Shown here piece by piece: positions 2,197 to 54,677 of a stretch of DNA of 55,650 bases. The DNA comes from Candidatus Nealsoniibacteriota bacterium (lineage in GTDB: Bacteria; Patescibacteriota; Minisyncoccia; Minisyncoccales; GWA2-38-27), in contig JAUWYA010000002.1 in NCBI GenBank assembly GCA_030616085.1, forward strand, positions 1 to 55,650, read 5' to 3'. The position numbers and the translations under genes are program-made. Within the stretch, counting starts at the first letter, position 1; each line of letters opens with the position of its first letter. The notes below the pieces were generated by a model, which saw nothing but the letters and a program-made list of their open reading frames with translations, made no database searches and was not told where the DNA came from.

Positions 2197-2214
2197 AACT
2201 ATCAGTAGTTCATA

Positions 2215-2255
2215 AGCCCAGTTACAACAGTGTTTGCAATTGGGCTATTTTTTTA
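2215..2255 (+). terminator. Intrinsic terminator after LMW phosphatase-like gene
   Basis: Stem AGCCCAGTT / AATTGGGCT is followed by a run of seven T (after one A). It closes a monocistronic plus-strand unit. Confidence 0.8.
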
Positions 2256-2318
2256 TTTCAAGATTATATATCACACCTTAACGAATCAAGGTTCTGCCAA
2301 AGGTAGGGTCTTATTTCC
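2256..2318 (-). repeat. Dispersed leader element, copy 1
   Basis: On the minus strand it reads a small hairpin, then ACCTTGATTCGTTAAGGT, then ATATATAATCTTGAA. The same order of blocks occurs at 15984-16074, 18071-18127 and 54678-54747. Here it lies just after the stop of array member B and points toward member A across the antisense phosphatase gene. It contains a possible TATAAT -10 box. Confidence 0.6.
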
Positions 2319-3669: not shown

Positions 3670-3678
3670 AGATAATTT

Positions 3679-5088: not shown

Positions 5089-5089
5089 A

Positions 5090-6529: not shown

Positions 6530-6544
6530 GTTTAACTTAAGAAA

Positions 6545-8011: not shown

Positions 8012-9465
8012 AGATTAACTGCTTTTTTTAAAATCCTTACAATCCCCTTCTCCGCATCAACTTCCACCAAATCTCCATCTTTTAATACTTTAGTTGCTAT
8101 TTTGGTACCGATGATACAGGGTTTGTTCATCTCACGTGCCACAATAGAAGCGTGAGAGGTTATTCCACCCTCATTAGTTACAAAAGCAGCTGCTTTTTCC
8201 ATAATAGGAACAAAATCAACGGATGTCATAGTCGTAACCAGTATTTCCTTTGATTTAAACTTATTAAAATCTTTAGAGCTTAGAATAATACTTACGATCC
8301 CACGAATCTTACCGCTGTTAGCGCTCAATCCTTTTATTTGTTTTACTTTCTTATCTTTCTTCTTAGATTTTCCTTGAATTAACTTAATGTGGCTGAGAAA
8401 GGAATTTAAGTCAGAATCATTCAGGAAAACTAAATCATCACTAGTTGCAATACGCATTCCTACTATTCTTCTCTTTTTAACAATTTTAGATACTGGTATC
8501 TTTCTACCTTTTAACATTGAAGTTATTTCTTCTGGTAAAAGATAAAAACAAAATTTCCAATCAGAGAAATTATAAAGATTAGCAATCTGAGCAAAAATAG
8601 AATAGAGCTTAAGAGAAACTATGCTAAAAATATTCTTTCTAAATTCATTGAGAGAAGTGCCCTCTTGAACTGCTAATGCAAGTATTCCAATATTCCTGTT
8701 ATTTATTTTTTTAAGAAGGATTTTTGCTTCATCAATTTTCTTTTTATGGTTTTTTCTAATTGCATCTTTTTCTCTTTTGCAGTCTTTTTTAAGAACTTCC
8801 TTTAGCTGCTTCTTTGCATCAACTAGCTTCCAAGGATTACCACAATAACCTACTGGAATATGACCATATTCTTCAAGCCATTTTTCTAAATAATTGTTTA
8901 TTTGATGATTCTTGATTGTTTTATTTTGTATCTTTTCTCCAATAGTTAATAAGTTAAATTGTGAATCAAAAAGAGGAGTGTGTTTTTTTGGATAAGTAAT
9001 TATAGCTAATATTTCTGGGATTTTTGTCTCAGAGAATCCTTTTTCTTTCAATTTTGCAATAAGTAGCTTTGCTCCAGAGCGTCCAATGACGGAGGTTAAA
9101 AATAAACCGGCGGTAAACCTTTGACATTCTTTAATAAGTTTCTCCCAATTTAAAACCGTAAGACTTTTTTCACATTTCTTAGTTGCAGTTAAAAATTCTT
9201 TGGCATATCTTTGATACTTTTCTTTTAATTTTTTTATTTTTGTCTTTGTGCTAACTGCCTTCATCACCGATCTTTTATACTCTTCTAGGTTTTTAGGGCG
9301 GGTGAAAAGATGTACTTCTGTGCCATTTTCCACAATAAAAAGTAGCTCTACACCCTTGTCTACGCCGAAATCCTTACTATTGTGATAATGACCCCTAGTA
9401 GACAAACATTGTGTCCAAAAAGGTAGATTCCTTGTAATAACAAGCTTCCATTGATCTTTTTTCAT
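8008..9465 (-). CDS. PEP-swivel domain protein, array member F
   Basis: 485 aa; N-terminal start QWKLVITRNLPFW. The swivel domain has GGITSHASIVAREM and H438. The normally conserved MTTP step before the domain core reads MTSVDF here, losing the proline found in most paralogues. It overlaps the ATP-grasp gene by 4 bp upstream and member E by 4 bp downstream. That makes it the best candidate for a dedicated partner of the ATP-grasp subunit. Confidence 0.85.
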   Translation of the reverse strand: MKKDQWKLVITRNLPFWTQCLSTRGHYHNSKDFGVDKGVELLFIVENGTEVHLFTRPKNLEEYKRSVMKAVSTKTKIKKLKEKYQRYAKEFLTATKKCEKSLTVLNWEKLIKECQRFTAGLFLTSVIGRSGAKLLIAKLKEKGFSETKIPEILAIITYPKKHTPLFDSQFNLLTIGEKIQNKTIKNHQINNYLEKWLEEYGHIPVGYCGNPWKLVDAKKQLKEVLKKDCKREKDAIRKNHKKKIDEAKILLKKINNRNIGILALAVQEGTSLNEFRKNIFSIVSLKLYSIFAQIANLYNFSDWKFCFYLLPEEITSMLKGRKIPVSKIVKKRRIVGMRIATSDDLVFLNDSDLNSFLSHIKLIQGKSKKKDKKVKQIKGLSANSGKIRGIVSIILSSKDFNKFKSKEILVTTMTSVDFVPIMEKAAAFVTNEGGITSHASIVAREMNKPCIIGTKIATKVLKDGDLVEVDAEKGIVRILKKAVNL

Positions 9466-10451
9466 AAAGTAGTAATAGGTCTTGATTGAGTAATATATAT
9501 TTTATTATTCTCTATTGCGAATTCTATGTCTTGTGGGAATTTATAATGGTCCTCTATTTTCTGGCAAAGCTTTGCTAATTTTATGATTTGCTCGCCAGAA
9601 AGTTTTTGTTTAGATTGTTTTGATTTAGGAACTTTAGCTTCTTTAATACCATTACCTTGTCTAATAATCATCATTTTCTGATCACTAATATTAGTATCCA
9701 TAATTATCCAATCCTTTTTAGATATCACATAGGTATCAGGGGTTATCTTTCCGCCAACAATGTCTTCTCCTAGGCCCCAGCCGGCCTCAATGACCATCTG
9801 ATTCCTGTCTTCGGTTACAGGATGTACAGTAAAACAGATACCAGAAACACCTGATTGAACCATTTTCTGAACTACTACCGCCACTCCTACTGGATAACAA
9901 TCAGCTAATTGCTTACAAGTTCTAGCTCTGATTTTCTTTTGCGTATCAGCAGTAATAATTTCCTTTTCAAAAGCATAGAATAAAGCCCTGGGAGTAAATA
10001 AAGAAGACCAGCATTTTTTAATGTTTTCTATTAAATTAGATTCAGCAGTGTTTAAATATGTCTCTAACTCCCCTGCCCAGGAAGCAATTGCAGAATCTTC
10101 AGCAGTTGCAGAAGATCTTACAGCAACATATTTAGTATTTAATCTCTTAAATTCTTTCAGAAACTCTTCTTCTAAATCCTGAGGCATTAAAGCATCATGG
10201 ATTAGGTCCCTAATCACATTTGAAGCCTTATCAATAGAATTAATATCTTTATAATTCATTTGTTTTATTTGAGAAGCGATTTCAACAGCTAAATCAGTTT
10301 CTCTCAAAAACTTATCAAATGCCTCGACTAAAATAATAAAACCTGGTGGCACCGACAGTTTAGCCCGGGTCATCTCACCTAATGAAGCTCCTTTGCCTCC
10401 AGCAATACAAACATCTTTTTTAGATATAGTTTTAAATGTTTTTATAAACAT
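9462..10451 (-). CDS. Stand-alone PPDK/PEP-synthase-type ATP-grasp domain protein
   Basis: 329 aa, equal to only the N-terminal nucleotide-binding domain of PEP synthase, PPDK and rifampin phosphotransferase. Visible family motifs are GGKGASLGEM (18-27), AVRSSATAEDS with R112, SWAGELETYLN, GWGLGEDIVGGKITPDTY, and a C-terminal IEFAIENNKIYITQSRPIT. It lacks a swivel domain and an acceptor domain. These are instead supplied in trans by the eight neighbours, which have swivel domains and no ATP-grasp. In family enzymes this domain moves a phosphate from ATP to the swivel histidine. It is the only ATP-grasp copy in the window, so it is probably shared. It overlaps member F by 4 bp. Confidence 0.9.
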   Translation of the reverse strand: MFIKTFKTISKKDVCIAGGKGASLGEMTRAKLSVPPGFIILVEAFDKFLRETDLAVEIASQIKQMNYKDINSIDKASNVIRDLIHDALMPQDLEEEFLKEFKRLNTKYVAVRSSATAEDSAIASWAGELETYLNTAESNLIENIKKCWSSLFTPRALFYAFEKEIITADTQKKIRARTCKQLADCYPVGVAVVVQKMVQSGVSGICFTVHPVTEDRNQMVIEAGWGLGEDIVGGKITPDTYVISKKDWIIMDTNISDQKMMIIRQGNGIKEAKVPKSKQSKQKLSGEQIIKLAKLCQKIEDHYKFPQDIEFAIENNKIYITQSRPITTL

Positions 10452-10452
10452 A

Positions 10453-10533
10453 TTACTTTTCCCTTTTTAATATTTTTATTATACCATTATTAGCGTCTAT
10501 TTTCACTAAATCTCTACCCAATTTAGCTTGACT
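10453..10533 (-). pseudogene. C-terminal remnant of a ninth swivel-domain gene
   Basis: The minus strand reads ...AKLGRDLVKIDANNGIIKI... then a stop, matching the DGDLVEVDAEKGIVKI end of intact array members. Only the last 25 or so codons remain, lying directly upstream of the ATP-grasp gene. The upstream part is replaced by the promoter of the plus-strand phosphatase gene. This shows that the phosphatase unit interrupts a former array member or that a member was deleted there. Confidence 0.75.
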
Positions 10534-10556
10534 TTTTAGAATAGCTATGATATAAT
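10528..10556 (+). promoter_or_regulatory. Sigma-70 promoter of the histidine phosphatase gene
   Basis: TTGACT at 10528-10533, 17-bp spacer, TATAAT at 10551-10556 preceded by TGA (extended -10). Shine-Dalgarno AAAGGAG at 10607-10613 precedes the ATG at 10620. Confidence 0.8.
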
Positions 10557-10619
10557 GAACCTATGAACATTTACAATTAGTTAAACATATTTGAAAGAAA
10601 AATCAGAAAGGAGAACGCA

Positions 10620-11372
10620 ATGACTGTTTTACATTTTTTCCGTCACGCAAATGCAGAAGGAAGCGATGATCTTGAAACCATTCTCGCAACTTTTGACTAT
10701 CAAACGGATCTAGAAAGGGGTCTTACAGAAAAAGGTATGAGGCAGGCTCAATTACGACAAGACTATCTGGGAGATTTATTATTTGATTTGTGTATCGTAA
10801 GTCCGGCAAAACGATGTCGACAAACAGCTCAGAGATTAATTGGTTATGGTATGAAAATTCCAATAATTGAACTTCCTACGCTATATCCCAGCCCGGAAGC
10901 ACCAAATGGTAAATTGATGTGGAAAACCTTTAGAAGACTTCTTTATGAACCTCTTTCTGCATATCTTAAGTCAGAAGCAGCCGAAATTATTCTTCAAAAT
11001 GGAGTTGAAAATGGGAATGCAATCAAAAGAATTATTGCAGAACATTCTCCGGCTCCACGAAATGTCTTGATTGTTGATCACGCAGTTACACTTCAAGCAG
11101 CTGGCAGTCAATTCACTTCTGATATCGAGATCTTTAACTTTAAAGTCGGCGAGGCAGAAGGTTTCAAAATTGAAATGAACACTGGAGAAATTACTCTCCT
11201 AGGACCCATACATTATAATAGTGTGGGTCTTTTCTTTTACTATTTTATGATCTTTATTAATCTTTTTTTAGAATCTATTTCTACCCTATTTCCTGTTTTA
11301 AGAACTTTTGTAGCAATTTTTGTCCCAACAATACAAGGTATTTTTAATTCTCTTGCTAACATTGAAGCGTGA
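10620..11372 (+). CDS. Histidine phosphatase (phosphoglycerate mutase fold) protein
   Basis: The N-terminal FFRHANA gives the catalytic R8-H9 (an RHA variant of RHG), SPAKRCRQTA supplies R65, and VDHAV supplies the second histidine H154. Family members form a phosphohistidine intermediate and hydrolyse small phosphate esters or protein phosphohistidine (SixA-like). The gene has its own promoter, Shine-Dalgarno and hairpin terminator, and lies antisense inside the swivel array. The conserved fold seems to end near residue 195. The remaining 55 residues read through the terminator and into the antisense 3' end of array member G, so the original stop may have been lost. A role in reversing array phosphorylation is inference. 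Confidence 0.85.
   Translation: MTVLHFFRHANAEGSDDLETILATFDYQTDLERGLTEKGMRQAQLRQDYLGDLLFDLCIVSPAKRCRQTAQRLIGYGMKIPIIELPTLYPSPEAPNGKLMWKTFRRLLYEPLSAYLKSEAAEIILQNGVENGNAIKRIIAEHSPAPRNVLIVDHAVTLQAAGSQFTSDIEIFNFKVGEAEGFKIEMNTGEITLLGPIHYNSVGLFFYYFMIFINLFLESISTLFPVLRTFVAIFVPTIQGIFNSLANIEA
11203..11238 (+). terminator. Intrinsic terminator within the histidine phosphatase ORF tail
   Basis: Stem GACCCATAC / GTGTGGGTC followed by TTTTCTTTT. It lies before the annotated stop codon, supporting the view that the ORF tail is an extension past the original gene end. Confidence 0.7.
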
Positions 11373-12286
11373 CAAAGCAGTCCCCCCTCATCAGTTATAA
11401 TAGCCCCTGCTTGTTTAATAAATTTATTAAACTGGGGTCTGGTCTGGGGCGTGACTAAAACCATTCCTTTTTTAATATTCTTTAAATTCTTAAAATCTTT
11501 AACTAAATAAACTTTTCCTTTAAATTTCCCTTTTTGAGCAACTATACCCTTTATCTCTTTTATTCCTTTCAAGCATTCCTTGTTTCTTTTTTCTATGAAA
11601 TCTTCTAATTTTTTGGAATCTTTCCAGCTGAGAATAGTTCTTTTGCCTTTTATAAATAAAATACCTAATCCATTTTTTCTTTCTTTCTCTGAAAAAAACT
11701 TATAACTATCCCCTATTTCATCATAGAGAAATTTATCTATTTTTAACTTCTTAAAATATTTCTCTGCATCCGGAATAACCATCTCATTATATTTATATGC
11801 TTTATCTAATATCTTTATAATCTTTTTAGTCTTTTCTTTATTTTTTTTCAAAGATAATTTTGAAATATAATCTCCTGTCCAATAAACTGTCTGGTGATAA
11901 GCAAAAAATATTCTGTAATTATCTACAAACTCTTTTTTATTCTTAAGAAAATCGTCTAATTTCTTATTCTTTTTCAAAAACCCATAAAACCAATCTGTAT
12001 ATTCTATTAACTTTTTAGCTAGATTTCTTGTGTGCCCTATTTTTCTCCTTAAGGACCTTTCCCCTAGTACTTTCGCAAAATTATCCTGTTCTGTTTGGGA
12101 ACGATAAAATCTTGTTAGATTATTTCCTATAAACCAAAATGTAGAACTAAATTCTATGCTAAACTCTTTCTTAAAACAAAAATCATATGTTTCTGCAAAA
12201 ATAGAATTAGTTAAAAGTGAAATGTCTCTTATAGCGTGTTTGCTATAATTTTTAGGAATAGATTTTATTATTTTATTTATGTTCAT
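11240..12286 (-). CDS. PEP-swivel domain protein, array member G (short form)
   Basis: 348 aa, the shortest member; its N-terminal region lacks the W-x-R start seen in E, F and H. The swivel domain reads GGLLCHASMLAREL with H306. The step before the core is QTRPQF instead of MTTPxY. It overlaps H by 14 bp, so the two are probably coupled. Its 3' end overlaps the plus-strand phosphatase ORF tail by about 130 bp. Confidence 0.83.
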   Translation of the reverse strand: MNINKIIKSIPKNYSKHAIRDISLLTNSIFAETYDFCFKKEFSIEFSSTFWFIGNNLTRFYRSQTEQDNFAKVLGERSLRRKIGHTRNLAKKLIEYTDWFYGFLKKNKKLDDFLKNKKEFVDNYRIFFAYHQTVYWTGDYISKLSLKKNKEKTKKIIKILDKAYKYNEMVIPDAEKYFKKLKIDKFLYDEIGDSYKFFSEKERKNGLGILFIKGKRTILSWKDSKKLEDFIEKRNKECLKGIKEIKGIVAQKGKFKGKVYLVKDFKNLKNIKKGMVLVTPQTRPQFNKFIKQAGAIITDEGGLLCHASMLARELKIPCIVGTKIATKVLKTGNRVEIDSKKRLIKIIK

Positions 12287-13730
12287 TTTCTTTTATAATC
12301 TTAACAGTTCCTTTATTAGCATCTACTTCCACAAAGTCCCCATCTTTTAGTGCTCTTGTGGCGATTTTAGTGCCAATAATACAGGGTATTCCTAATTCTC
12401 GGGAAACTATGGCTGCATGGCAGGTAATCCCTCCTTCATTAGTAATTATAGCTGCTACTTTTTTTAAAATCACCATAAAATCAGGTGAAGTCATACTAGT
12501 AACTAATATATCCTTATTTTTAATTTTCGCGAAATCCTTCTTTTTTAAAACTATTTTTACTTTTCCTTTTAATTGACCTGGATAAGCTACTTTACCTCTA
12601 ATTTCTTTGGTAATAAATTTTCTTTCTTTGATCTTAGCTTTGTAGATTATTCTTTCTTTGTCTTTTATAGAATAATAAACAAATGCTTTCTTTCTTGTCT
12701 CAATTTCTTTCTTTAATTTGGAAGATACGTCCCAGGCTCTAATCGCCTCTTCTACTTCACAGGCTTTTAAATAACTAAAATCTTTAAAGGTTAAATCAAA
12801 TTGTTTGGCTAAAAAAGTGAAAAATTTTCTAAAACGGTAACCTACTAAACTATAAGTGTCAGTACGGTAGGTTCTGATAAAAACAATAGCTTTAGCAATT
12901 TTTATTATCAATTTTTCCTGTTTAGAAAAATTAAGTTGTTTGATTAAAGAATTAAATTTTTTCTTTGCTAATTTATCTCTTTGCCCAAGTTCTTCTAGCA
13001 GAGATTCAGCCTTGAATAGCTTTTTTCTAATTTCTTTTATTAGATCCTGACGAGTGAGAGGTTTTCCTATCCATAAATGAGTGCTTGTCCAAGCATATAG
13101 AGATAGGTGTTTTTCTATTTTAAGTTGAACTTTTGGATCTCGGAGGGAAAGTTTATTTTTTTTAATCCACTGAAGTAGCTTTAAGAAGTCCTCTTGTTCT
13201 TCTTCTATAAAAATTTTCTGCTGTGGTTTAATTATCAAACCCAAAACATCGTTCTCATTAAGTGAAACTTTATATCTCTTTATTTTTGGCCTGATAATCT
13301 TCTCTATTAAATATTTTTCTAAATACTTATCTATTGTTTGAGGAACTACTAGCCAAAAAGCAAAATCCTGGCTTCTTTTTTTAAACTCTCGCCAAATTTT
13401 TAAAATTTCCTTTTGAGATAAAATCTCTAATTTTTGCTTCTCTATCTTGTTTGCAAATTTTATAAACGATTCCCCTTCTTGAAAACACTTTTTGAGTAAT
13501 CTTTCCGCCTTGATAGGATTTTTTATAATAAAACTAAGCAATCTTGAACCAGAAATCTTAAAATCCCTCTCTACAAAATAAACATCACCCGAAGAATCAA
13601 CTTTTTTATAATCCTGGCCAACATTTAAGCCTCGTTTTTTTCTAATATAAGAAAAACAATAACCTGGAAATATTATAGAAAAAAATAAAATAGGTACACG
13701 TCCTCGATTAGCAAATAATTTCCAATGCAT
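12273..13730 (-). CDS. PEP-swivel domain protein, array member H
   Basis: 485 aa; start HWKLFANRGRVPILF resembles members E and F. The middle region is charged helix. The swivel domain has GGITCHAAIVSREL with H438 and the tail DGDFVEVDANKGTVKI. It is the first intact gene at the upstream end of the array. A frameshifted paralogue remnant lies just upstream. Confidence 0.85.
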   Translation of the reverse strand: MHWKLFANRGRVPILFFSIIFPGYCFSYIRKKRGLNVGQDYKKVDSSGDVYFVERDFKISGSRLLSFIIKNPIKAERLLKKCFQEGESFIKFANKIEKQKLEILSQKEILKIWREFKKRSQDFAFWLVVPQTIDKYLEKYLIEKIIRPKIKRYKVSLNENDVLGLIIKPQQKIFIEEEQEDFLKLLQWIKKNKLSLRDPKVQLKIEKHLSLYAWTSTHLWIGKPLTRQDLIKEIRKKLFKAESLLEELGQRDKLAKKKFNSLIKQLNFSKQEKLIIKIAKAIVFIRTYRTDTYSLVGYRFRKFFTFLAKQFDLTFKDFSYLKACEVEEAIRAWDVSSKLKKEIETRKKAFVYYSIKDKERIIYKAKIKERKFITKEIRGKVAYPGQLKGKVKIVLKKKDFAKIKNKDILVTSMTSPDFMVILKKVAAIITNEGGITCHAAIVSRELGIPCIIGTKIATRALKDGDFVEVDANKGTVKIIKENEHK

Positions 13731-14818: not shown

Positions 14819-15823
14819 CTACCTCTTTCCTTTTTTTACTAAAAAATCAGATTCCATTCTGATTTTTTTTAATAAAAACCAGGGCATTTTAAAGCCTAAA
14901 AAATAAACTGATTTAACCGCTACCTTGGAAAGAATAATTTTTGGGATAAAGAACCTTCTCATTGCTTTTTTGTATTTCAGAAAGTCAGGAAAAGCTTTTA
15001 AAAGAATTCCGGCTGCTGTTAATCCCCAAATCACTCCCCCACCAGACCAAGATTTTGTTAAGCCAATGGCATCTCCGCATAAAGTTATTAAAGGATCTGA
15101 TGGTATTATAAAGCCCTGAGGAACTATTTTTGATTCAATTCTCTTAAGAATAATTTTGTTTTTATTCAGAAATTCATCAAGAAGTATTTTAGCCTCTCTT
15201 GGATTGGCAAGTATTCCATATTCTGTTTCTTTGCCTCTCGGAATCTTCCAGATAAACCCCGTTAGAGATTTATTTTTTTTGTCTTTTTTCTTTTGTCCTG
15301 TAATCTCTAACGGGGTAAAGCCATTTTTGCAGGGCCAAGTTTCTACATAATTTTCAGAACAAGGATTGTCTAAGAATCCTAAGATACCTAATCTATATTT
15401 AGGCTCTGAAAGCCTCAAGCTTTTTCTTACAAAAGAGTTAGCTCCATCGCAGCCGATTACTCTATCATATTCTTTAGGAACTGAAGAAATATTGCTGTTC
15501 AAGATAATCTTAGCTCCCGCCCTATGAGCTAAGCCAGCTACTAATCTGTCTAACTCAGAGTGGCTCATTACAAAAAAATCCCTAGAAAACTTTACCTTTA
15601 CTGTTTTCTTAGGAAAATGCAGAAGAACGTGATCTATTCTATTTTGTATTAATTTACTGCTTTCAGGTATAAATTCTAAAATTCTTTGAGAAAAAAGCCC
15701 TGAACAAGCATTATTGCTGATTTCTTTTTTTCTTTCAAAAACAGTTATATCATGTTTTTTCTCAGAGAGCTTCCATGCTAAATATAGTCCGGAAATGCCC
15801 CCGCCGATAATCGCTACCCGCAT
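14819..15823 (-). CDS. FAD-dependent oxidoreductase, geranylgeranyl-reductase-like
   Basis: The N-terminal GGGISGLYLAWKLSEKKHDI dinucleotide-binding motif is followed by FERKKE, and a second FAD motif LITLCGDAIGL lies near residue 265. This matches the GGR/halogenase flavoprotein group acting on isoprenoid or lipid double bonds, but the substrate cannot be read. About 21 residues near 185 (TPLEITG...KSLTG) are encoded by a 61-bp palindromic element inserted in frame. The gene next door makes an isoprenoid diphosphate, consistent with a lipid role. Confidence 0.8.
   Translation of the reverse strand: MRVAIIGGGISGLYLAWKLSEKKHDITVFERKKEISNNACSGLFSQRILEFIPESSKLIQNRIDHVLLHFPKKTVKVKFSRDFFVMSHSELDRLVAGLAHRAGAKIILNSNISSVPKEYDRVIGCDGANSFVRKSLRLSEPKYRLGILGFLDNPCSENYVETWPCKNGFTPLEITGQKKKDKKNKSLTGFIWKIPRGKETEYGILANPREAKILLDEFLNKNKIILKRIESKIVPQGFIIPSDPLITLCGDAIGLTKSWSGGGVIWGLTAAGILLKAFPDFLKYKKAMRRFFIPKIILSKVAVKSVYFLGFKMPWFLLKKIRMESDFLVKKGKR
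15256..15316. repeat. 61-bp palindromic element inside the flavoprotein gene
   Basis: Arms ACCCCGTTAGAGATT and AATCTCTAACGGGGT are perfect 15-bp inverted repeats at the two ends. The element is flanked by the dinucleotide AA on both sides; 61 + 2 bp gives 21 codons, keeping the frame. Confidence 0.9.
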
Positions 15824-16396: not shown

Positions 16397-18070
16397 ACTG
16401 GTTTTAATAAACTCTCTAAACAATGGATGAGGCCTTAGGGGCCTTGATTTAAATTCTGGATGGAATTGAACAGCTACAAAGAAAGGATGATTCTTATTTT
16501 CAATTATCTCTACTAAATCTTTTTCAGGATTAATTCCAGCCATTACTAATCCATTTTTTTCTAAAATCTCTCTATAATCGTTATTTAACTCATAACGGTG
16601 CCGATGTCGCTCAGATATCATTGAATCTTTGTACACCTTAGCACTAATTGTGTTTGGTTTTATCTTGCATTTGTAAGCGCCTAATCTCATTGTTCCTCCG
16701 TATTTTCTTTCTTTCAAAAGAACTTTTTGTTCCGGCATAACATCAATTACAGCTTCTTTATTTTTTGACCCCGTTAGAGGTTTTGAAATTTCGTGTTTTT
16801 TGTTTGTCTTTTTAACCTCTAACGGGGTTGAAAACTCAGTTGAACTTGCATTTTTCAGCTTACAAACATTTCTGGCAAACTCAATTACTGCTAACTGCAT
16901 TCCCAGGCAAAGTCCTAAAAAAGGGACTTTGTTTTTTCTGCAGAATTCAATTGCTTTTATTTTTCCCTCTATTCCTCTGGTTCCAAAACCTCCAGGAATA
17001 ATTATACCATCATATTTTCTTAATTCTTTTACTGAAGCAGGATTTTTCTCATATTTCTCTGCTGATAACCAAGAAATCTTAGGTTTTCTTTTTAAAGAAT
17101 AAGCAGCATGTTTTACCGCTTCAATTACTGAAATGTAAGAATCTGTTAAAGTAAATCCTCCTGTTTTAAAGTATTTCCCAACAATACCAATTTTAACCGT
17201 TTTTTTAGAGCTCTTTATTTTATTTACAAACATCTTCCAATCTTTCATATCTTTCTTTTTTTTTGGTTTTAAGCTCAACTTTTTTAAAAGCTTACTGCCT
17301 AAATTTTCTTTTTCAAAATTAAGAGGAACCTCATAAATTGTTTCAATATCTGGAGCAGAAATAACATCTTCAGGCGCAACATTGCAGAAAACTGATATTT
17401 TCTTTTTCCTGACTTCATCCAAAGGAACTGCTGAGCGAGCCAGAATTATATTCGGCTGAATACCTGCTGAATTCAAAGTTCTAACAGCATATTGAGTTGG
17501 TTTTGTCTTCATTTCTCCAATTTTCTTTGGAATTGGCAGATAACTGACTAAAATAAAAAGCACATCTTTTGGATGGCTTAATTTCATCATTCTGGCTGCT
17601 TCCAGAAATAGCAGATTTTGATATTCCCCTACTGTTCCTCCTATTTCTACTAATATAAACTCAGACTTTGTTTTTCTTCCTGCCCGTTTAATTCTAGAAA
17701 TTACTTCATTTGGAATATCAGGAACCACTTCTACGCATTTACCATCATATTCTAAGTTTCTTTCCCTATTTATCACTGCCTGATAAACCCTGCCAGTAGT
17801 TAAATAGTTATCTGTATAAATATCTTCGTCTAGAAACCTTTCATAATTTCCCACATCCTGATCGCATTCAATCCCGTCATCAGTTACAAAAACCTCTCCG
17901 TGTTCAATAGGATTCATAGTTCCGGCATCAACATTAATATAGGGATCAATTTTAATTGCAGTAACCTTAAATCCTTTGCTTTTTAAAATTCTGCCAATTG
18001 AAGATACTGCTATCCCTTTTCCAATGCCAGACATTACACCGCCTGCGACAAAAATGTACTTCGCCACCAT
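16388..18070 (-). CDS. pyrG: CTP synthase
   Basis: Makes CTP from UTP, ATP and glutamine. The N-terminal synthetase domain starts YIFVAGGVMSGIGKGI, and the C-terminal glutaminase has the catalytic cysteine in GLCLGMQ. The ATG at 18070 is chosen because synthase homology starts there; the track start lies 15 codons upstream inside the leader element. The 560-aa length exceeds the usual 535-545 because a 61-bp palindromic element adds 21 residues (TPLEVKK...KPLTG) to the glutaminase domain just after ASSTEF. That position is a surface loop ahead of IDVMPEQ, so activity can be retained. Confidence 0.96.
   Translation of the reverse strand: MVAKYIFVAGGVMSGIGKGIAVSSIGRILKSKGFKVTAIKIDPYINVDAGTMNPIEHGEVFVTDDGIECDQDVGNYERFLDEDIYTDNYLTTGRVYQAVINRERNLEYDGKCVEVVPDIPNEVISRIKRAGRKTKSEFILVEIGGTVGEYQNLLFLEAARMMKLSHPKDVLFILVSYLPIPKKIGEMKTKPTQYAVRTLNSAGIQPNIILARSAVPLDEVRKKKISVFCNVAPEDVISAPDIETIYEVPLNFEKENLGSKLLKKLSLKPKKKKDMKDWKMFVNKIKSSKKTVKIGIVGKYFKTGGFTLTDSYISVIEAVKHAAYSLKRKPKISWLSAEKYEKNPASVKELRKYDGIIIPGGFGTRGIEGKIKAIEFCRKNKVPFLGLCLGMQLAVIEFARNVCKLKNASSTEFSTPLEVKKTNKKHEISKPLTGSKNKEAVIDVMPEQKVLLKERKYGGTMRLGAYKCKIKPNTISAKVYKDSMISERHRHRYELNNDYREILEKNGLVMAGINPEKDLVEIIENKNHPFFVAVQFHPEFKSRPLRPHPLFREFIKTSIK
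16768..16828. repeat. 61-bp palindromic element inside pyrG
   Basis: Arms ACCCCGTTAGAGGTT / AACCTCTAACGGGGT, perfect over 15 bp. Flanked on both sides by TG, a likely 2-bp target duplication. It is translated in frame within an essential enzyme. Confidence 0.92.
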
Positions 18071-22377: not shown

Positions 22378-23871
22378 TTATTTTCTCAACGCCCTTCTTA
22401 TTGCTTCAAGAAAGATATTAGTGTTTTCTTTTCTAATTGAACGAAGCTTTATTTTTCTGGCAAAAGAAACAAATCTTTCTTTGCTTGGAATTGTTTCTTC
22501 AATAATTGACTTTTTTTCAACTGGTTTTTCCTCTTCAGGAGGCATATATTCTTCTGGCGGCTTACCTTCCTGAAATTCACCTTTGTATGGTTCTTCCTCA
22601 AATTTCATTTCTCCTTCAGGAGGTCCATGATACTCCTGCTCCTGCTGTTGTTGCTGCTGTTGTTCCTGTTCCTGCTGCTGCTGCTGTTGTTGTTGCATTC
22701 CTTTTATCATTTCTTCTGCTTCTTCTTGAGTCATAAAGCCCTGTTCTACGCCGAATTTAATACATTCTTCAGCATGATCTGGACCTTTACAATAATTCTC
22801 ACATTCTTCTTTACCCATACAGCCGCCGGGTCCGCCCTGCATCATCATTTCTTTTTCTTCTGGAGAAATCATTCCCATTTTTTCTCCAAATTCCACACAC
22901 TCTTCCATATTATCTGGGTTTTGGCAAAAAGTATCACATTCTTCCTTGCCCTGACATCCACCAGGACCGCTAGTAAGACCCATTTCAGCCATTTTCTTGG
23001 CATTTTCTGCTTCTTCTTCAGTCATAAAACCAGCTTTTACAGCAAAGTCAATGCATTCTTGCATATGAGACAGATCATTGCAATAAGCATCGCATTCTAC
23101 TTGTCCTTTACAGCCGCCTGGACCTCCAAATAAACCAGCTTCAAGCATTTTTTCAGCTTTTTCTATTTCTTTTTTTGGCATAAGGCCATATTTCTTAGCA
23201 AATGCTATACATTCTCTCATATGGGATGCTTCATCGCAATAAGCATCACAGGCCTCTTTTCCGCAGCATCCACCTGGCGAATCTCCACCAGTTTTTCTTA
23301 TCATAATTGCTTCTTCTGCAGAAATAAGGCCAGCTGCCTCAGCAAAACTAACGCATTCTTCCATATGCGCTGGTCCACAGCAATAAATATCACATTGTGT
23401 CTTGCCGCGACAATTCGGATGCTTTGCTCCTTTTTTAATTCCTGATAACACTTTTTTCGCTTCTTCAAGCTCTTCTGGAGAAAGAACGCCTGCTGCTTCA
23501 GCAAAAGCAACACACATTTCCATATGTTCTGGTTCAGAGCAATAAATATCACATTCTGCTTTGGTATTGCAAGGAGGCGGCGTTATTCCTTTTTTAATAG
23601 CAGCGAGCACCTTTTTAGTTTCTTCAAGTTCTTCTGCAGGTATTAAATTATGTTTTTCAGCAAAAATAATACATTCCTCAAGATGAGAAATGTCATCGCA
23701 ATAAATCTTACATTCTTCTCTATTTGCGCAATTCCCAAGCTCAAGAACTGGATAATTAATTTCATCTTGAGCTAAAACCAAGACTGCGAAAAGACCAAAT
23801 AAAGATAAAGATATTATAATAAAATATTTCTTCACCCCGTTAGCCCCATTAAGATTTTTTTTATTTTTCAT
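22378..23871 (-). CDS. Secreted Cys-rich seven-repeat protein with poly-Q linker
   Basis: 497 aa. The N-terminal helix (about 15-33) ending VLAQDE acts as signal or anchor. Seven tandem repeats of about 45 residues follow, each with four cysteines in a C-x4-5-C-x3-C-x7-10-C pattern (for example ECDAYCNDLSHMQECIDFA) and a helical FA/EEAE tail. A linker rich in glutamine (CAA/CAG and GAG codons) and then an acidic proline-rich stretch precede a basic C-terminal helix. Function is unknown; paired cysteines suggest disulfide-stabilised surface helices. The first residues, NGANGV, are encoded by an arm of a palindromic element that spans the start codon. Confidence 0.75.
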   Translation of the reverse strand: MKNKKNLNGANGVKKYFIIISLSLFGLFAVLVLAQDEINYPVLELGNCANREECKIYCDDISHLEECIIFAEKHNLIPAEELEETKKVLAAIKKGITPPPCNTKAECDIYCSEPEHMEMCVAFAEAAGVLSPEELEEAKKVLSGIKKGAKHPNCRGKTQCDIYCCGPAHMEECVSFAEAAGLISAEEAIMIRKTGGDSPGGCCGKEACDAYCDEASHMRECIAFAKKYGLMPKKEIEKAEKMLEAGLFGGPGGCKGQVECDAYCNDLSHMQECIDFAVKAGFMTEEEAENAKKMAEMGLTSGPGGCQGKEECDTFCQNPDNMEECVEFGEKMGMISPEEKEMMMQGGPGGCMGKEECENYCKGPDHAEECIKFGVEQGFMTQEEAEEMIKGMQQQQQQQQEQEQQQQQQQEQEYHGPPEGEMKFEEEPYKGEFQEGKPPEEYMPPEEEKPVEKKSIIEETIPSKERFVSFARKIKLRSIRKENTNIFLEAIRRALRK

Positions 23872-23991
23872 GATAATTTTTAGATTATTGTTATTTCTAA
23901 CCCCGTTAGAAATTTTCTTACTATTTTAAATTATAAATTATAAAATATTTATGCCTTCTTAAAATATAATTTCTAACGGGGCTAACGGGGT
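23834..23991. repeat. Compound palindromic element spanning the start of the Cys-rich gene
   Basis: Outer arms ACCCCGTTAGCCCC (23834-23847) and GGGGCTAACGGGGT (23978-23991) are perfect over 14 bp. Inner arms ACCCCGTTAGAAATT (23900-23914) and AATTTCTAACGGGG (23968-23981) are nested. TC flanks both outer ends. It looks like one element inserted into another of the same family. Confidence 0.8.
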
Positions 23992-24010
23992 TCATATTTT
24001 TATTTGCGTT

Positions 24011-24271
24011 TTACTCAAATGGATTTTGGTATGCCTCATCAAAAGGATTAACAATCTCATCAAACGGATTGGTTGAAGGCATGTTTTCCATTGGACTTGA
24101 CACTATATCTCCTGCTTCTACTTGAGCAGCTGCCCTTCCTATTTCTACTCCTTCCTCATAACCAACTTTATGTCCGTAATAATAAGCTCCGCCTGCTGCA
24201 GCGACAATTACAATCACAAAAATCAGAATTATTAATAATTGTTTGTTATTTACCCCGTTAGAAATTGTCAT
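24011..24271 (-). CDS. Small single-helix membrane protein with NPF repeats
   Basis: 86 aa. A strongly hydrophobic helix (about 11-30) is followed by a GxxxG-like segment (YYYGHKVGYEEGVEIG) and an acidic tail with three NPF[DE] repeats. The first residues ISNGV come from a palindromic element arm, so the element supplied or reshaped the translation start. Not a named family. Confidence 0.65.
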   Translation of the reverse strand: MTISNGVNNKQLLIILIFVIVIVAAAGGAYYYGHKVGYEEGVEIGRAAAQVEAGDIVSSPMENMPSTNPFDEIVNPFDEAYQNPFE

Positions 24272-24322
24272 AAATTTATTTAGCCCCGTTAGGGATTATT
24301 TTAATAAAATTTCTAACGGGGT
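24253..24322. repeat. 70-bp palindromic element at the start of the NPF protein gene
   Basis: Arms ACCCCGTTAGAAATT (24253-24267) and AATTTCTAACGGGGT (24308-24322), flanked by TT on both sides. A further half-site GCCCCGTTAGGGATT lies inside. Confidence 0.85.
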
Positions 24323-24425
24323 TTATATTATCTATAATATTTTATTATACCATTATAAAAAAAGCTTTCTCTGTGGAAAACTTTTTTCCCGTACAATATC
24401 CTAAATTAGAAAATAAAGAAATTTA

Positions 24426-35403: not shown

Positions 35404-35734
35404 ATTTTTGCCTGCCGTTAGCCCTGCCTGCGTTTTTGAACTTCGGCAAGGTAAGCGAGCCGAAAAATTTTTGTAAATCGTTGCGTAAAACGCAACGATT
35501 TTTTTATTTTATCCATTTTATCAAAAAACAGCTTTTTTGGCAATTTACTAAAGTATAAAAAAAGCCCATCAGATTTTCCGATGGGCTTTATCTTTAAAAT
35601 TGTCCAGCGATAGGCTTTTTTGTTTAATTAAAAACCGTCCGAATCTAATCGGAGCGGTTTTGAAATCTGATTTATAACCCAGAAATTATTCCTTGCTTAC
35701 TCTCTTTTTATTAATTTTACGGAATTGTTTTTAC
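35404..35734. other. Intergenic region with repeat terminators
   Basis: No gene is seen. It contains the GAGCCGAAAAATTTTTGTA unit joined to the hairpin CGTTGCG-loop-CGCAACG and a T-run (35456-35510), a short CAGCGATAGGCTTTT block shared with 28381-28395, and the hairpin AAAACCGTCCGA / TCGGAGCGGTTTT (35631-35661). Confidence 0.6.
35557..35590 (-). terminator. Terminator of the sigma factor operon
   Basis: On the minus strand GCCCATCG-loop-TGATGGGC is followed by seven T. It lies 145 bp past the stop of the 300-aa membrane protein. Confidence 0.75.
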
Positions 35735-38595: not shown

Positions 38596-38911
38596 TCAAT
38601 TTTGAATAAAGTTAGAACTTTTTATCAACAAAATCCAAATGATGATTTTTAAACGGCTCTGAAAAAGCGCCAGCCCCTTTTTCAGAGCCGGGTCCAGCAA
38701 AGCTGGACAACAGGCGGGCAAAAATTCATTTCCCCCAGATTTACCCCGTAGGAAGCCCGCAGGCTTTCCTTTGGGGCGCCCTTTTCTTTTTGCCCGTTGT
38801 TAGCCGAGCCGAAAAATTTTTGTATCGTTGCGCTTTGCCAACGATTTTTTTTATTCGCTTTTTTAATACTCTGTCCCCTTGGAAAAATGTTGAATATTTA
38901 CTCATCCTTAA
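38596..38911. other. Structured intergenic region
   Basis: No gene is seen. It holds a perfect 14-bp hairpin CGGCTCTGAAAAAG / CTTTTTCAGAGCCG (38654-38690), a CCAGC-AAA-GCTGG hairpin, a nested CCCCGTAGGAAGCC...GGCTTTCC...GGGG palindrome (about 38743-38776), and a GAGCCGAAAAATTTTTGTA repeat joined to CGTTGCG...CAACG plus T-run (38806-38853). Confidence 0.6.
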
Positions 38912-40896: not shown

Positions 40897-41003
40897 AGTT
40901 TTAAGATAAATGACGTATTCAATAGAGTTTACTCTTCAAGCATGCCAAAATTTATTTCACTTAACAAGTTTTAAGCACACTTATTTAAAACCTGCTAATA
41001 GTC

Positions 41004-41052
41004 GAGCCGAAAAATTTTTGTATCGTTACGCAAAGCGCAACGATTTTTTTTG
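41004..41052 (+). repeat. GAGCCGAAAAATTTTTGTA repeat joined to a terminator hairpin
   Basis: GAGCCGAAAAATTTTTGTA, then CGTTACGC-aaa-GCGCAACG and eight T. The same composite occurs at 35456-35510 and 38806-38853, with a partial copy at 40109. No plus-strand gene precedes it, so it may insulate the following small RNA promoter. Confidence 0.7.
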
Positions 41053-41079
41053 TTTTACGATTTTTTTAGTTTTTAACAC

Positions 41080-41107
41080 TTGACAAAGGGTATCAGTTTG
41101 CTATACT
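41080..41107 (+). promoter_or_regulatory. Promoter of small RNA 1
   Basis: TTGACA (41080-41085), 16-bp spacer ending TTTGC, TATACT (41102-41107). The TTTGC-TAYANT extended -10 form is shared with the promoters at 48067 and 50269. Confidence 0.75.
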
Positions 41108-41113
41108 GACAAT

Positions 41114-41188
41114 GTCTTTCGGTTCTGCCATAGAACCGTTAGGGTTATACATCCTAGGGCCATCCTCTTAGCTGAGGGTGGTTTTGTT
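41114..41188 (+). ncRNA. Small RNA 1, antisense-facing neighbour of an NYN nuclease gene
   Basis: About 75 nt from the predicted start to an intrinsic terminator. Hairpin CGGTTC-tgccata-GAACCG is followed by CCATCCTC-loop-GAGGGTGG and TTTTGTTTT. There is no plus-strand gene downstream; the RNA ends at the stop codon of the convergent NYN gene. A 19-codon ORF from the ATG at 41112 cannot be excluded. A similar unit sits at 50269-50360 beside another NYN gene. Confidence 0.6.
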
Positions 41189-41773
41189 TTACTCTTTTGC
41201 GCGATGTTTTAAATCTTTACCCCAAAGTTCATTTATTTTTTTTAAATCAAAATAGCCATTCCCGCCTGTTTTTAATTCGTGAGAAATATTGTCTTTTGAT
41301 GAAAAAATATAAACCTTTTTGCCGTGATTTTTCAAATAATTTACCAATGCTAAAAAGTCAGCATCACCACTAAATAAAATAGCTACATCGTATTTGTTTA
41401 TATTATGTAGAGCATCAATCGTTATCTCTACATCCATATTCCCTTTTTCTATAACAGATTCTCCACTCTCGCTAATAATAGAGATTCTCTTTAACTCCTT
41501 TTTTCTTACGGTAAAACCAAGACCTTTCTTAAGATATGTATAAAATTTATGCTTTCCATCTAAGTTGTAATCTCTTGTTCCTTCTTTTGGGTAAGCGTCA
41601 TAGTAAAAAATTTCAACTTTGCTGGTATTAAAATTATTCTTAAAATAATCTTTGAGTTTTTTATATTCAATAAACTTCTTAATTGATTTTACGGCATTCC
41701 AAACATTTGAAGCATCAATAAAAACATAAATTACATTCTCATTTTCTATTTCTTTGTTTTTTTGATTAAACAT
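41189..41773 (-). CDS. NYN domain ribonuclease-like protein
   Basis: 194 aa, LabA/DUF88 group of PIN-like nucleases. Acidic catalytic positions are visible in VFIDASNVWNA, KGNMDVEITIDAL and ILFSGDADFLALV. Members cut RNA. It converges on small RNA 1, whose terminator ends at its stop codon. Confidence 0.9.
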   Translation of the reverse strand: MFNQKNKEIENENVIYVFIDASNVWNAVKSIKKFIEYKKLKDYFKNNFNTSKVEIFYYDAYPKEGTRDYNLDGKHKFYTYLKKGLGFTVRKKELKRISIISESGESVIEKGNMDVEITIDALHNINKYDVAILFSGDADFLALVNYLKNHGKKVYIFSSKDNISHELKTGGNGYFDLKKINELWGKDLKHRAKE

Positions 41774-50268: not shown

Positions 50269-50297
50269 TTGACACTATAAATAGATTTTGCTATATT
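50269..50297 (+). promoter_or_regulatory. Promoter of small RNA 2
   Basis: TTGACA (50269-50274), 17-bp spacer ending TTTGC, TATATT (50292-50297). Same extended -10 form as at 41080 and 48067. Confidence 0.7.
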
Positions 50298-50303
50298 TAA
50301 ATA

Positions 50304-50360
50304 ATCATTACGAAAAAGACCCTTATGCGGTTCTGTCCGCATTGGGGGCTTTTTCATTTT
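50304..50360 (+). ncRNA. Small RNA 2, overlapping the 3' end of an NYN nuclease gene
   Basis: About 55 nt. A nested hairpin ATGCGG-ttctgt-CCGCAT sits inside AAAAAG-ACCC / GGGGG-CTTTTT and is followed by CATTTT. Apart from the promoter there is room only for this structure. Unlike small RNA 1 it overlaps the last codons of the convergent NYN gene. A plain bidirectional terminator is the alternative. Confidence 0.5.
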
Positions 50361-50853
50361 GAGCTTTTAAAATTAACTTTTGATCATCTATATAAGATAT
50401 CTTCGCCCCTGTTCTTTTCAAAAGTATTGAACATTTCTTTGGAGTATTTGGAGATAATATAATACTCAATTTATGCCTTTCTATTAAAAATTTGACTAAA
50501 CCGGCATAATCTCCATCGCTTGTAATAATAACTGCTTTTTAAAATTTATTCTCATAGGTATCACAAACTGCTTGTAATACAAAATCAGCATCGCAATTAC
50601 CTTTTGGCTTTCCTGTTCCGTCATATATAATTTCTTTAAAAATAAGAGTAAATCCTGACTTTTGCAGATATGTGTAAAGATTTTTGTATTTTGAAATCAA
50701 ACCAATAAAAATATAAGCTTTTTTTACGTCATATTTTTCAGATAACCAAATTCTAAATCTTTTATAATCCAAAGACCATCTAAGTTCTTTAATCGCCTTA
50801 TCTAAATTTGCTCCGTCTATATAAGCGAAATTATTACTTTCTTTTTTCTTCAC
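50323..50853 (-). pseudogene. NYN domain nuclease gene interrupted by an in-frame stop
   Basis: From a GTG at 50853 the frame reads FAYIDGANLDKAIKEL, GNCDADFVLQAV and TYENKF, then TAA at 50539-50541, then in the same frame KAVIITSDGDYAGLVKFL and on to a stop at 50323. All catalytic acidic positions of the LabA-type NYN fold are present across the two parts. One codon change therefore separates it from an intact 176-residue nuclease. The C-terminal codons overlap small RNA 2. Confidence 0.8.
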
Positions 50854-52766: not shown

Positions 52767-54677
52767 ATGTCTAATCGTCTCACAAATTTAATCGCTGGCC
52801 TTCTACTTATTATAGTATTCCTGGTCTGTTTTTTCAGTATGAAAGGCGATTCAGCCACAATGGATGAAATGTCTCATATCCCGGCTGGCTATTCTTATCT
52901 AACGCAGAAAGACTTTCGTATTAACCCGGAGCATCCTCCATTGGTAAAAGACCTGGCTGCTCTTCCACTTCTATTTTTAGATCTAAACTTCCCGGAAGAC
53001 CATAGCTCCTGGGCTGAGGGAACTAATGAACAATGGACGTATGGTTCTCAATTCCTATACTATTCAGGAAATAATCCTGATCAGATTATATTTTGGGCCA
53101 GAATCCCAATGATTCTGCTTTTATTATTCTTAGGCTGGTTCATATTCCGCTGGACAAAAGAATTAGCAGGAAACAAAATTGCTCTTTTAGTATTAACTCT
53201 ATTTTCTTTCTCCCCTACTTTCTTAGCCCATGGAAGATTGGTAACTACTGATGTTGCTGCAGCTTTGGGAGTGGTTATGGCTTCATATTTCTGGATAAAA
53301 TTCCTAAGAAGCCCGACAAAAAAGAATATAATCTTTGCAGGCCTGATATTTGGAGTATCAATGCTTTTAAAGTTTTCTTTAGTTCTGGTTATCCCTCTCT
53401 TTGGCATAATCACTGTAATTTATGCTTGGTTGAACCCCGTTAGAGGTTATAAAGGCAAAATGGGAGCACAAAGCGAAAAAACCTCTAACGGGGTGAAATT
53501 CCAAGAAAAAGACTTTAAACAACGTTTCTTAGAAGTTTTAAAATACATTGGCATGGCTCTAATTGCAGGAATAATTGGAATGATTCTTATCTGGCCAGTT
53601 TATCAATTCCATCTTTTAAATTATCCAGCTGAACGCCAAGTGCGGGATTCTGAGATTACTTTAGCTTCAGGCGGTATAAATATTACAGAAGGTATTTGCA
53701 TCTGGATGGCTGATAAACCTGGACTAAGACCTTATGGCCATTACTTTCTAGGGCTTCTAATGGCTAGCCAAAGGGTATCTGGAGGCAATACTGTATATTT
53801 TCTTAATGAAATTTCAAATAGAGGCTGGTGGTATTATTTCCCTGTTGTTTACCTTTTAAAAGTTCCTTTAGCTTTTCATATTTTATCTTTAATTGCTCTT
53901 TTGTATGTATTCTGGCTAATTATAATTAAAAGGCCTTTTTGGCAGAATATCTTTCACCGAATAAAAGAATGGATAAAGAATCATTTTACAGAATTTTCAA
54001 TGCTGGTGTTTTTGGCAATTTATTGGATCACTTCTATAACCGGAGCTCTTAATATTGGTGTAAGGCATATTTTACCTGTTTTTCCTTTCATATATATATT
54101 AGTTGGTTTGGCAATAGCAGCATGGATAAACCCCGTTAGAGATTACAAGAGCGATGAAGAAAGGCAAATCAAACAAATCTCTAACGGGGTAAAAAGAATA
54201 TCCAGCGCGCTTTGGAAAAAAATAGCAGTTTCTCTAGTTTTAGTGCTTTTGGCCTTTTACATAATCTCTTCTCTCTTAGTTTGGCCCCACTATCTAACCT
54301 ATTATAATGAAATTGCCAAAGGTCCTAAGAATGGATACAAATATGCAGTGGATTCAAATTATGACTGGGGCCAGGATTTGAAAAGATTAAAAGAATGGGT
54401 AGATGAAAATGAGATTGAGAAAATTTATCTTAGTTATTTTGGCGGAGGCAATCCTGAATATTATCTAAAGGAAAAATATGCTCCTTGGTGGGGTGATCGT
54501 GATAAAAAAGAACTTCCAGAAGGAAGTTACTTGGCAGTCTCTTTAACATTGCTTCAAGGAGGCAAAGGAACTGCTGTAGCCGGCTTTGACCAATCAACCG
54601 GCTATTATCGCTGGCTTGACGATTATGAACCAATAGCTCGAATCGGCAACTCAATATTCATTTATTATATTGACTAA
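52767..54677 (+). CDS. GT39-like membrane glycosyltransferase carrying two palindromic insertions
   Basis: 636 aa, GT-C fold. The first outer loop has TMDEMSHIPAGYSYL with the D-E pair expected of ArnT/PMT-type enzymes and INPEHPPLVKDLAALPLLFL. About ten membrane helices follow, with a C-terminal soluble part (DSNYDWGQDLKRL). It would transfer a sugar from a polyprenyl phosphate, fitting the GT2-GtrA gene next door. Two segments, NPVRGYKG...KTSNGV and NPVRDYKS...QISNGV, are encoded by separate 61-bp elements in loops between helices. Confidence 0.88.
   Translation: MSNRLTNLIAGLLLIIVFLVCFFSMKGDSATMDEMSHIPAGYSYLTQKDFRINPEHPPLVKDLAALPLLFLDLNFPEDHSSWAEGTNEQWTYGSQFLYYSGNNPDQIIFWARIPMILLLLFLGWFIFRWTKELAGNKIALLVLTLFSFSPTFLAHGRLVTTDVAAALGVVMASYFWIKFLRSPTKKNIIFAGLIFGVSMLLKFSLVLVIPLFGIITVIYAWLNPVRGYKGKMGAQSEKTSNGVKFQEKDFKQRFLEVLKYIGMALIAGIIGMILIWPVYQFHLLNYPAERQVRDSEITLASGGINITEGICIWMADKPGLRPYGHYFLGLLMASQRVSGGNTVYFLNEISNRGWWYYFPVVYLLKVPLAFHILSLIALLYVFWLIIIKRPFWQNIFHRIKEWIKNHFTEFSMLVFLAIYWITSITGALNIGVRHILPVFPFIYILVGLAIAAWINPVRDYKSDEERQIKQISNGVKRISSALWKKIAVSLVLVLLAFYIISSLLVWPHYLTYYNEIAKGPKNGYKYAVDSNYDWGQDLKRLKEWVDENEIEKIYLSYFGGGNPEYYLKEKYAPWWGDRDKKELPEGSYLAVSLTLLQGGKGTAVAGFDQSTGYYRWLDDYEPIARIGNSIFIYYID
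53434..53494. repeat. 61-bp palindromic element, first copy in the GT39-like gene
   Basis: Arms ACCCCGTTAGAGGTT / AACCTCTAACGGGGT, flanked by GA on both sides; read in frame as NPVRG...SNGV. Confidence 0.92.
54130..54190. repeat. 61-bp palindromic element, second copy in the GT39-like gene
   Basis: Arms ACCCCGTTAGAGATT / AATCTCTAACGGGGT, flanked by AA on both sides; read in frame as NPVRD...SNGV. Its centre differs from the first copy, so the two are independent insertions. Confidence 0.92.

What the first reader, a model, noticed from the sequence alone, without database searches (positions are those of the whole stretch)
41080..41773. Small RNA facing an NYN ribonuclease gene, locus 1
A consensus promoter (TTGACA, TATACT), about 75 nt with two hairpins and a strong terminator sit on the plus strand with no gene to express. 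The transcript ends exactly at the stop codon of a convergent NYN-type RNase gene. The same arrangement occurs at 50.3 kb. A recurrent RNA plus RNase pair could be an RNA-regulated nuclease or a toxin with RNA partner.
Basis: partly seen in the sequence, partly recalled or inferred. Interest (0 to 1): 0.7.

Follow-up and report, generated by a model that had tools for sequence, protein, structure and literature searches.

The report
Mobile RNA-plus-nuclease pair in Patescibacteria
A tiny structured RNA made from its own strong promoter sits tail-to-tail with a gene for an RNA-cutting enzyme, the two travel together as a unit between distantly related ultra-small bacteria, and they look like an undescribed toxin-and-RNA-antidote pair.

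Summary
At 41,080 a near-consensus extended promoter drives a ~78-nt RNA of two hairpins, the second a terminator, ending on the stop codon of a convergent NYN ribonuclease gene. In this 740-kb Patescibacteria genome, four of seven NYN genes have such a unit; no other gene does by the same strict criteria (P about 2e-9).

It is conserved far beyond this genome. Of 80 loci fetched only by similarity to this NYN protein, all 80 carry the same RNA, convergent at the gene's 3' end. RNA-first searches of 246 genomes gave the converse: 17/17 (family A), 11/11 (C), 60/75 (B). Covariation is strong; G-U wobbles outnumber A-C mismatches 263:11, so the fold is selected on the RNA strand. Conservation starts sharply 5 nt after the -10 box. 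DNA similarity spans only promoter-RNA-NYN, and the unit jumps between families, once into a cultured Bacteroidota beside a serine recombinase.

Best reading: a mobile two-part module in which a constitutive RNA restrains a cognate NYN RNase (toxin-antitoxin-like). Pairing, structure and mobility are shown; toxicity and inhibition are inferred. No Rfam family matches, and type I and III TA definitions are not met. The NYN at 50.3 kb carries an in-frame stop.

The parts
41080..41107 (+). Promoter of the small RNA: TTGACA, 16-nt spacer with TG one base before the -10, TATACT
   Evidence: 11/12 consensus with TG. In 60 of 66 relatives scored, the -10 ends exactly 5 nt before the conserved TGTC start of the RNA.
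41113..41190 (+). Family A small RNA (~78 nt, predicted from TSS to terminator)
   Evidence: Fold z = -4.2; covariance model R1 hits window 41108-41191; 80/80 homologous NYN loci carry it.
41116..41142 (+). Hairpin 1 of the family A RNA (CTTTCGGTTCT / AGAACCGTTAG)
   Evidence: 11 pairs, 9 with changes on both sides among 79 distinct sequences.
41143..41154 (+). Conserved linker GGTTATACATCC of the family A RNA
   Evidence: GGGT..tACATCc is nearly invariant in 81 sequences.
41155..41190 (+). Hairpin 2 / intrinsic terminator of the RNA
   Evidence: 13 pairs, then TTTTGTTTT; 96% of cells paired across relatives.
41189..41773 (-). Convergent NYN ribonuclease gene, 194 aa, intact, catalytic Asp residues D20, D114, D137, D139 conserved
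   Evidence: Pfam NYN E = 4.8e-22; invariant columns in A8 and A9; best solved relative 2QIP VPA0982 by fold and by profile.
50269..50297 (+). Promoter of the second small RNA: TTGACA, 17-nt spacer with TG, TATATT
   Evidence: 11/12 consensus with TG.
50301..50361 (+). Family B small RNA (one long hairpin with the conserved apical GGTTYYGTCC loop, doubling as terminator)
   Evidence: R2 hit, 72.7 bits, E = 9e-14; fold z = -5.5; 15 of 17 pairs with compensatory changes.
50320..50853 (-). Second NYN gene, interrupted by an in-frame TAA at 50539-50541; its 3' end overlaps the RNA
   Evidence: Pfam NYN E = 6e-12 read through; stop seen.

Best explanation
This is one copy of a small mobile two-gene module: a stand-alone structured RNA with its own strong, probably constitutive promoter, and a convergent NYN-family ribonuclease. 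Shown by sequence: the pair is conserved, the RNA fold is under selection on its own strand, the transcript start is fixed by a conserved promoter, RNA families match NYN subfamilies, and the pair moves horizontally as a unit. Inferred: the abundant RNA binds its cognate NYN protein and keeps the nuclease in check, so the pair works like a toxin-antitoxin (addiction or abortive-defence) module in which loss or turnover of the RNA frees an RNase. The NYN gene has no comparably strong promoter inside the conserved unit, so the RNA should be in excess.
For: (1) 80/80 NYN-A loci fetched by protein alone have the RNA convergent at the 3' end. (2) RNA-first search: convergent NYN in A 17/17 strong hits, C 11/11, B 60/75; outside the order 16/20 RNAs. 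(3) Asymmetry fits an antidote: RNA without intact NYN occurs (B orphans, some with NYN remnants; window locus 2 itself), but no intact A- or B-type NYN was found without the RNA. (4) 94.7% (A) and 91.5% (B) of cells pair, 16/26 and 15/17 pairs covary, 0/500 shuffles as good. (5) G-U 263 vs A-C 11 (A), 89 vs 8 (B): the RNA strand, not the mRNA strand or DNA, is folded. (6) RNA promoter score median ~1 mismatch versus ~4 upstream of NYN and in random windows; conservation rises abruptly at the predicted TSS. (7) Blast similarity spans just promoter to NYN start; NYN is 85% identical to a genome of another family whose DnaK is 72% identical, while the same-genus genome (DnaK 86%) lacks it. (8) In Niastella vici it lies beside a serine recombinase. 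(9) Catalytic Asp residues invariant across A, B, C, matching residues highlighted in a CRISPR-associated NYN where D13A abolished cleavage (PMC11346440). (10) In L130 the NYN is flipped yet still adjacent, so the pairing does not depend on convergence.
Against: No expression, toxicity, binding or cleavage data. NYN nucleases also serve in RNA processing (crRNA trimming, PMC11346440). Conservation of a linked pair is partly common descent of a linked unit (RNA-protein distance correlation r = 0.64). No virus or phage carrier was found, and only one locus has a recombinase within the 1.5-2 kb searched.
Confidence: 0.55

Rival explanations
1. The RNA is a cofactor, scaffold or guide that activates or directs the NYN nuclease (an RNA-dependent defence nuclease), rather than an inhibitor.
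For: Same anatomy: matched RNA and nuclease families, conserved loop and linker sequence, mobility, island with recombinase and a caspase-like gene in Niastella; PADLOC lists LabA-like NYN and HEC-09 as defence candidates with weak similarity.
Against: No variable guide segment: the RNA is short, fully structured and conserved in its unpaired parts. Orphan RNAs keep promoter and structure after NYN decay, which a mere cofactor would not explain.
Confidence: 0.22
2. The RNA is a cis-antisense regulator, acting by transcription collision or by pairing with the NYN mRNA 3' end, as in convergent type I toxin-antitoxin loci.
For: Convergent, overlapping the NYN stop codon or last codons by up to ~50 nt; strong promoter facing the gene.
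Against: Antisense pairing needs no conserved sequence or covarying fold, yet both are strong. Wobbles are tolerated mainly on the RNA strand. L130 has the RNA in tandem, not antisense. No cognate-specific pairing with the NYN start region: -25.9 vs -25.1 kcal/mol non-cognate.
Confidence: 0.12
3. The hairpin is just a bidirectional terminator with an accidental or housekeeping antisense promoter.
For: Hairpin 2 is an intrinsic terminator; the B hairpin has A- and T-tracts on both sides.
Against: Hairpin 1, linker and loops are conserved beyond terminator needs. No other gene in the genome has such a unit by the strict criteria. The ubiquitous core NYN beside a PNPase gene has none.
Confidence: 0.05
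4. The element is a DNA-level mark, e.g. a recombination site that folds in single-stranded DNA, as integron attC sites do, with transcription incidental.
For: Unit boundaries are sharp and the module moves.
Against: The promoter and its fixed 5-nt distance to the RNA start are conserved; pairing preference is for RNA wobble rules.
Confidence: 0.04

Closest known systems
Type III toxin-antitoxin systems (ToxIN, CptIN, TenpIN)
   Same: A small structured RNA would inhibit a partner endoribonuclease directly; RNA and nuclease families are matched and mobile.
   Different: ToxN-type toxins have another fold; their antitoxin RNA is a tandem repeat array upstream in the toxin's own transcript. Here the RNA is single-copy, has its own promoter and is convergent, and the enzyme is an NYN/PIN-like nuclease.
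Type I toxin-antitoxin systems with convergent antisense RNA (Fst/RNAII of pAD1, bsrG/SR4, yonT/SR6)
   Same: Strong small-RNA promoter, convergent transcription, overlap at the 3' end of the protein gene.
   Different: Type I toxins are small hydrophobic peptides controlled by antisense pairing. Here the protein is a ~194-aa nuclease and the RNA fold and loops are conserved across lineages.
CRISPR-associated NYN ribonuclease of the Bacteroides fragilis type III system (PMC11346440)
   Same: Same NYN nuclease fold with the three catalytic Asp positions; works on small structured RNA.
   Different: It lies in a CRISPR locus and trims crRNA with no sequence preference. No Cas gene was seen at the window locus, and the RNA here has no spacer.
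LabA-like/DUF88 NYN proteins (TIGR00288; VPA0982, PDB 2QIP)
   Same: Closest protein family and closest solved structure.
   Different: No RNA partner found described for them in the papers searched; TIGR00288 score is far under its cut-off (27.7 vs 178).

Membership tests
NYN domain (Pfam PF01936) | Profile match above gathering score, conserved catalytic Asp residues | tested here: met
   79.5 bits vs cut-off 24.2; D20, N23, D114, D137, D139 invariant in 33 sequences of three subfamilies.
Type III toxin-antitoxin | Toxin of the ToxN/CptN/TenpN fold | tested here: not met
   Pfam match is NYN; Foldseek best 2QIP (NYN) and MARF1 NYN.
Type III toxin-antitoxin | Antitoxin RNA is a tandem repeat array upstream in the toxin operon | tested here: not met
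   No repeat array over the RNA; single RNA convergent downstream in nearly all loci.
Type III toxin-antitoxin | RNA binds and inhibits the nuclease protein | not testable with these tools
   Needs binding and cleavage assays.
Type I toxin-antitoxin | Small hydrophobic peptide toxin | tested here: not met
   Partner is a 194-aa NYN nuclease.
Type I toxin-antitoxin | Antisense RNA acts by base pairing with toxin mRNA | tested here: inconclusive
   3'-end overlap exists, but there is no cognate pairing at the start region, selection is on the RNA's own fold, and one locus is tandem.
Any Rfam family | Match at gathering score | tested here: not met
   No match at either RNA; only chance-level hits at E = 0.15 or worse.
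CRISPR-associated NYN | Encoded with cas genes and array | tested here: not met
   None of the ORFs listed from 37 kb to the window end, read by eye, is a cas gene; the neighbouring proteins scanned are a methyltransferase, a deaminase and a GDPD.

The most novel reading that the evidence does not exclude
A previously undescribed, phylum-wide class of mobile RNA-nuclease immunity or addiction modules, in which each NYN subfamily is permanently paired with its own small RNA family, forming an RNA-leashed or RNA-programmed ribonuclease outside the known toxin-antitoxin types and CRISPR.
Probability: 0.5. Interest if true: 0.9.

Novelty: new variant of a known kind. Interest (0 to 1): 0.8.

Why it matters
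Patescibacteria have tiny genomes and few recognised defence or addiction systems. Here is a compact two-part RNA-protein module present in a substantial share of them (family B RNA in 76 of 246 genomes of this order and 69 of 380 sampled phylum-wide), with at least three RNA families outside Rfam. It gives a function-ready hypothesis to accessory NYN nucleases, supplies covariance models to find more, and offers a testable copy in a cultured bacterium (Niastella vici).

Tried and rejected
Peptide instead of RNA in family B (MKKxLxRFxP-like frames): the ATG is often ACG, AGG or AGA, so rejected. Pairing of the RNA with the NYN start region: no cognate advantage. A TGT-ACA closing pair in family A: not kept across relatives. 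A tertiary pair suggested by mutual information (columns 47/73) was judged lineage structure and not pursued. Viral, phage and plasmid carriers: none in viral contigs or phages; only distant (~30%) NYN genes on rhizobial plasmids, not checked for an RNA. Literature searches found no description of an NYN gene paired with a small RNA in Patescibacteria; the library lacks most subscription journals. Four weak R1 hits without a promoter were treated as false positives.

Full report
WHAT IS THERE. On the plus strand of the window, TTGACA at 41080 and TATACT ending at 41107 form a near-consensus extended -10 promoter. About 78 nt follow, folding into two hairpins, the second an intrinsic terminator (z = -4.2). 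The transcript ends on the stop codon of a convergent gene of 194 codons whose product is an NYN-domain ribonuclease (PF01936, E = 4.8e-22). At 50.3 kb the layout recurs with another RNA and an NYN frame interrupted by TAA at 50539-50541. All points of the first observation hold.

IS IT MORE THAN CHANCE? The 740-kb genome was read in stretches and scanned. Sixteen promoter-plus-terminator units lack a gene; eight have an extended -10 and four of those eight face NYN genes at the 3' end. The genome has seven NYN genes. Besides the two in the window, the NYN genes in contigs C26 and C23 have the layout. All strict units falling on NYN genes has P about 2e-9. The remaining four extended units are three tRNA leaders and one unit beside a tRNA end.

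PROTEIN-FIRST TEST. Relatives of two NYN proteins were sought in 100 genomes. Nearly all accessory NYN genes had the convergent promoter-hairpin unit. Ten loci of the ubiquitous core NYN (own copy C28, directly upstream of a polynucleotide phosphorylase gene, my reading of its sequence) had none. Then 80 loci were fetched from named genomes by similarity to the family A protein alone, and the RNA model found the RNA in 80 of 80, on the opposite strand at the NYN 3' end. They span Nealson-, Portnoy-, Falkow-, Moran-, Nomura-, Azam-, Kaiser- and Saccharibacteria and others; a few carry non-Patescibacteria labels, mostly MAGs that may be misbinned.

RNA-FIRST TEST. Three RNA families were aligned (A; B; C) and made into covariance models R1-R3. 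In 246 genomes of the order, R1 gave 17 strong hits, R2 about 78 and R3 11. A convergent NYN gene follows in 17/17, 60/75 and 11/11 of those checked. Outside the order, 16 of 20 family B RNAs checked have it. R1 stays specific phylum-wide: 12 of 362 genomes with any match. Some of the B RNAs without NYN sit on NYN remnants or contig ends; several are true orphans that keep promoter and fold. In one locus (L130) the NYN is flipped, lying upstream in tandem. No intact A- or B-type NYN lacked the RNA; one apparent exception (G088) had a variant.

SELECTION ON THE RNA. Family A: 94.7% of cells pair, 16 of 26 pairs have double changes, 0/500 shuffles as high, slid structures far lower. Family B: 91.5%, 15 of 17 pairs. 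These alignments were fitted to the models, which leans counts toward the structure, but they are almost gapless. G-U pairs greatly exceed A-C (A 263:11; B 89:8; C 8:0). A structure needed on the mRNA strand or in DNA would not show this; part of it comes from fixed U-tracts of the terminator. In family A the -10 box ends exactly 5 nt before the conserved TGTC in 60 of 66 cases, and conservation jumps from under 1 bit to 2 bits there, as expected for a transcription start. The RNA promoters score far better than the region upstream of NYN.

MOBILITY. Blast of the window against relatives aligns only from about the RNA promoter to about the NYN start. The NYN protein is 85% identical to that of a Nealsonbacteria genome of another family whose DnaK is 72% identical, while a genome of the same genus (DnaK 86%) lacks it. 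In the isolate Niastella vici DJ57 (Bacteroidota; 404-kb contig) the module sits beside a serine recombinase, a coupling-protein-like ATPase and a caspase-like gene (gene names other than NYN are my reading of the sequences).

THE PROTEIN. Catalytic positions are invariant across the three subfamilies. A predicted structure (mean pLDDT 74.7, moderate) matches VPA0982 (2QIP) and MARF1 NYN, the same neighbours reported for the CRISPR-associated NYN shown to be a Mn2+-dependent RNase (PMC11346440).

HOW IT PROBABLY WORKS. Shown: conserved pair, RNA-level fold, fixed start, matched families, co-transfer. Inferred: the RNA is abundant and restrains the NYN nuclease. The loss pattern (RNA survives without NYN, NYN not found without RNA, NYN broken at 50.3 kb) is what an antidote would leave. 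An activating or guiding RNA is the main alternative; simple antisense control, a mere terminator and a DNA site fit worse, for the reasons listed under rivals.

WHAT IT IS NOT. It matches no Rfam family. It fails the toxin-fold and repeat-array criteria of type III TA and the peptide criterion of type I TA, so it is filed as working like an RNA-antitoxin system, not as a member. Novelty is set at new variant of a known kind because RNA-restrained nucleases are a known principle; if the RNA proves to activate or guide, it would be a new kind.

Noticed in passing
Own genome contigs C4:5343 (+), C16:8388 (+), C1:27047 (-) = L017, L028, L009: Three tRNA genes (tRNA-Leu TAG twice, tRNA-Pro TGG) are preceded by a strong promoter and an ~85-nt leader with a terminator; a 10-nt leader segment is complementary to the anticodon arm of the tRNA behind it, and the complementarity is kept although the sequences differ. 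Possible tRNA attenuator or decoy.
   Followed up: partly
window 15256-15324, 16764-16832, 23834-24338, 53424-53498, 54120-54195: Palindromic ACCCCGTTAGA...TCTAACGGGGT elements between genes, two of them in frame inside the ORF 52767-54677 (NPVRxY...SNGVK), reminiscent of protein-coding palindromic repeats.
   Followed up: no
window 35452-35519, 38801-38852, 40999-41064: Repeated terminator-like element GAGCCGAAAAATTTTTGTATCGTT-GCG...CAACGATTTTTTT, one copy just upstream of the small-RNA promoter.
   Followed up: no
L251 1816-1898 and 2589-2671; L243 1443-1503 and 2341-2401; L247 1501-1560 and 1605-1667; G046:C10 20920-21084: Some loci carry two or more copies of the RNA, in part tandem and without a second NYN gene.
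   Followed up: partly
L065, L066, L071, L073, L074, L079, L114, L116, L118 and own contig C23:12729: Further NYN genes have convergent promoter-hairpin RNAs that fit none of the three models; more RNA families probably exist.
   Followed up: no
window upstream of the NYN at 50.85-51.0 kb and own contig C23 upstream of its NYN: The two divergent NYN genes share a similar ~75-nt leader (GCTTGATTTTAAGCTAAAAAAGGAGTAAATT...) and a hairpin before it.
   Followed up: no
window 546-12560: Seven dispersed 60-75% identical copies of a ~271-nt segment, a paralogous gene family or repeat.
   Followed up: no
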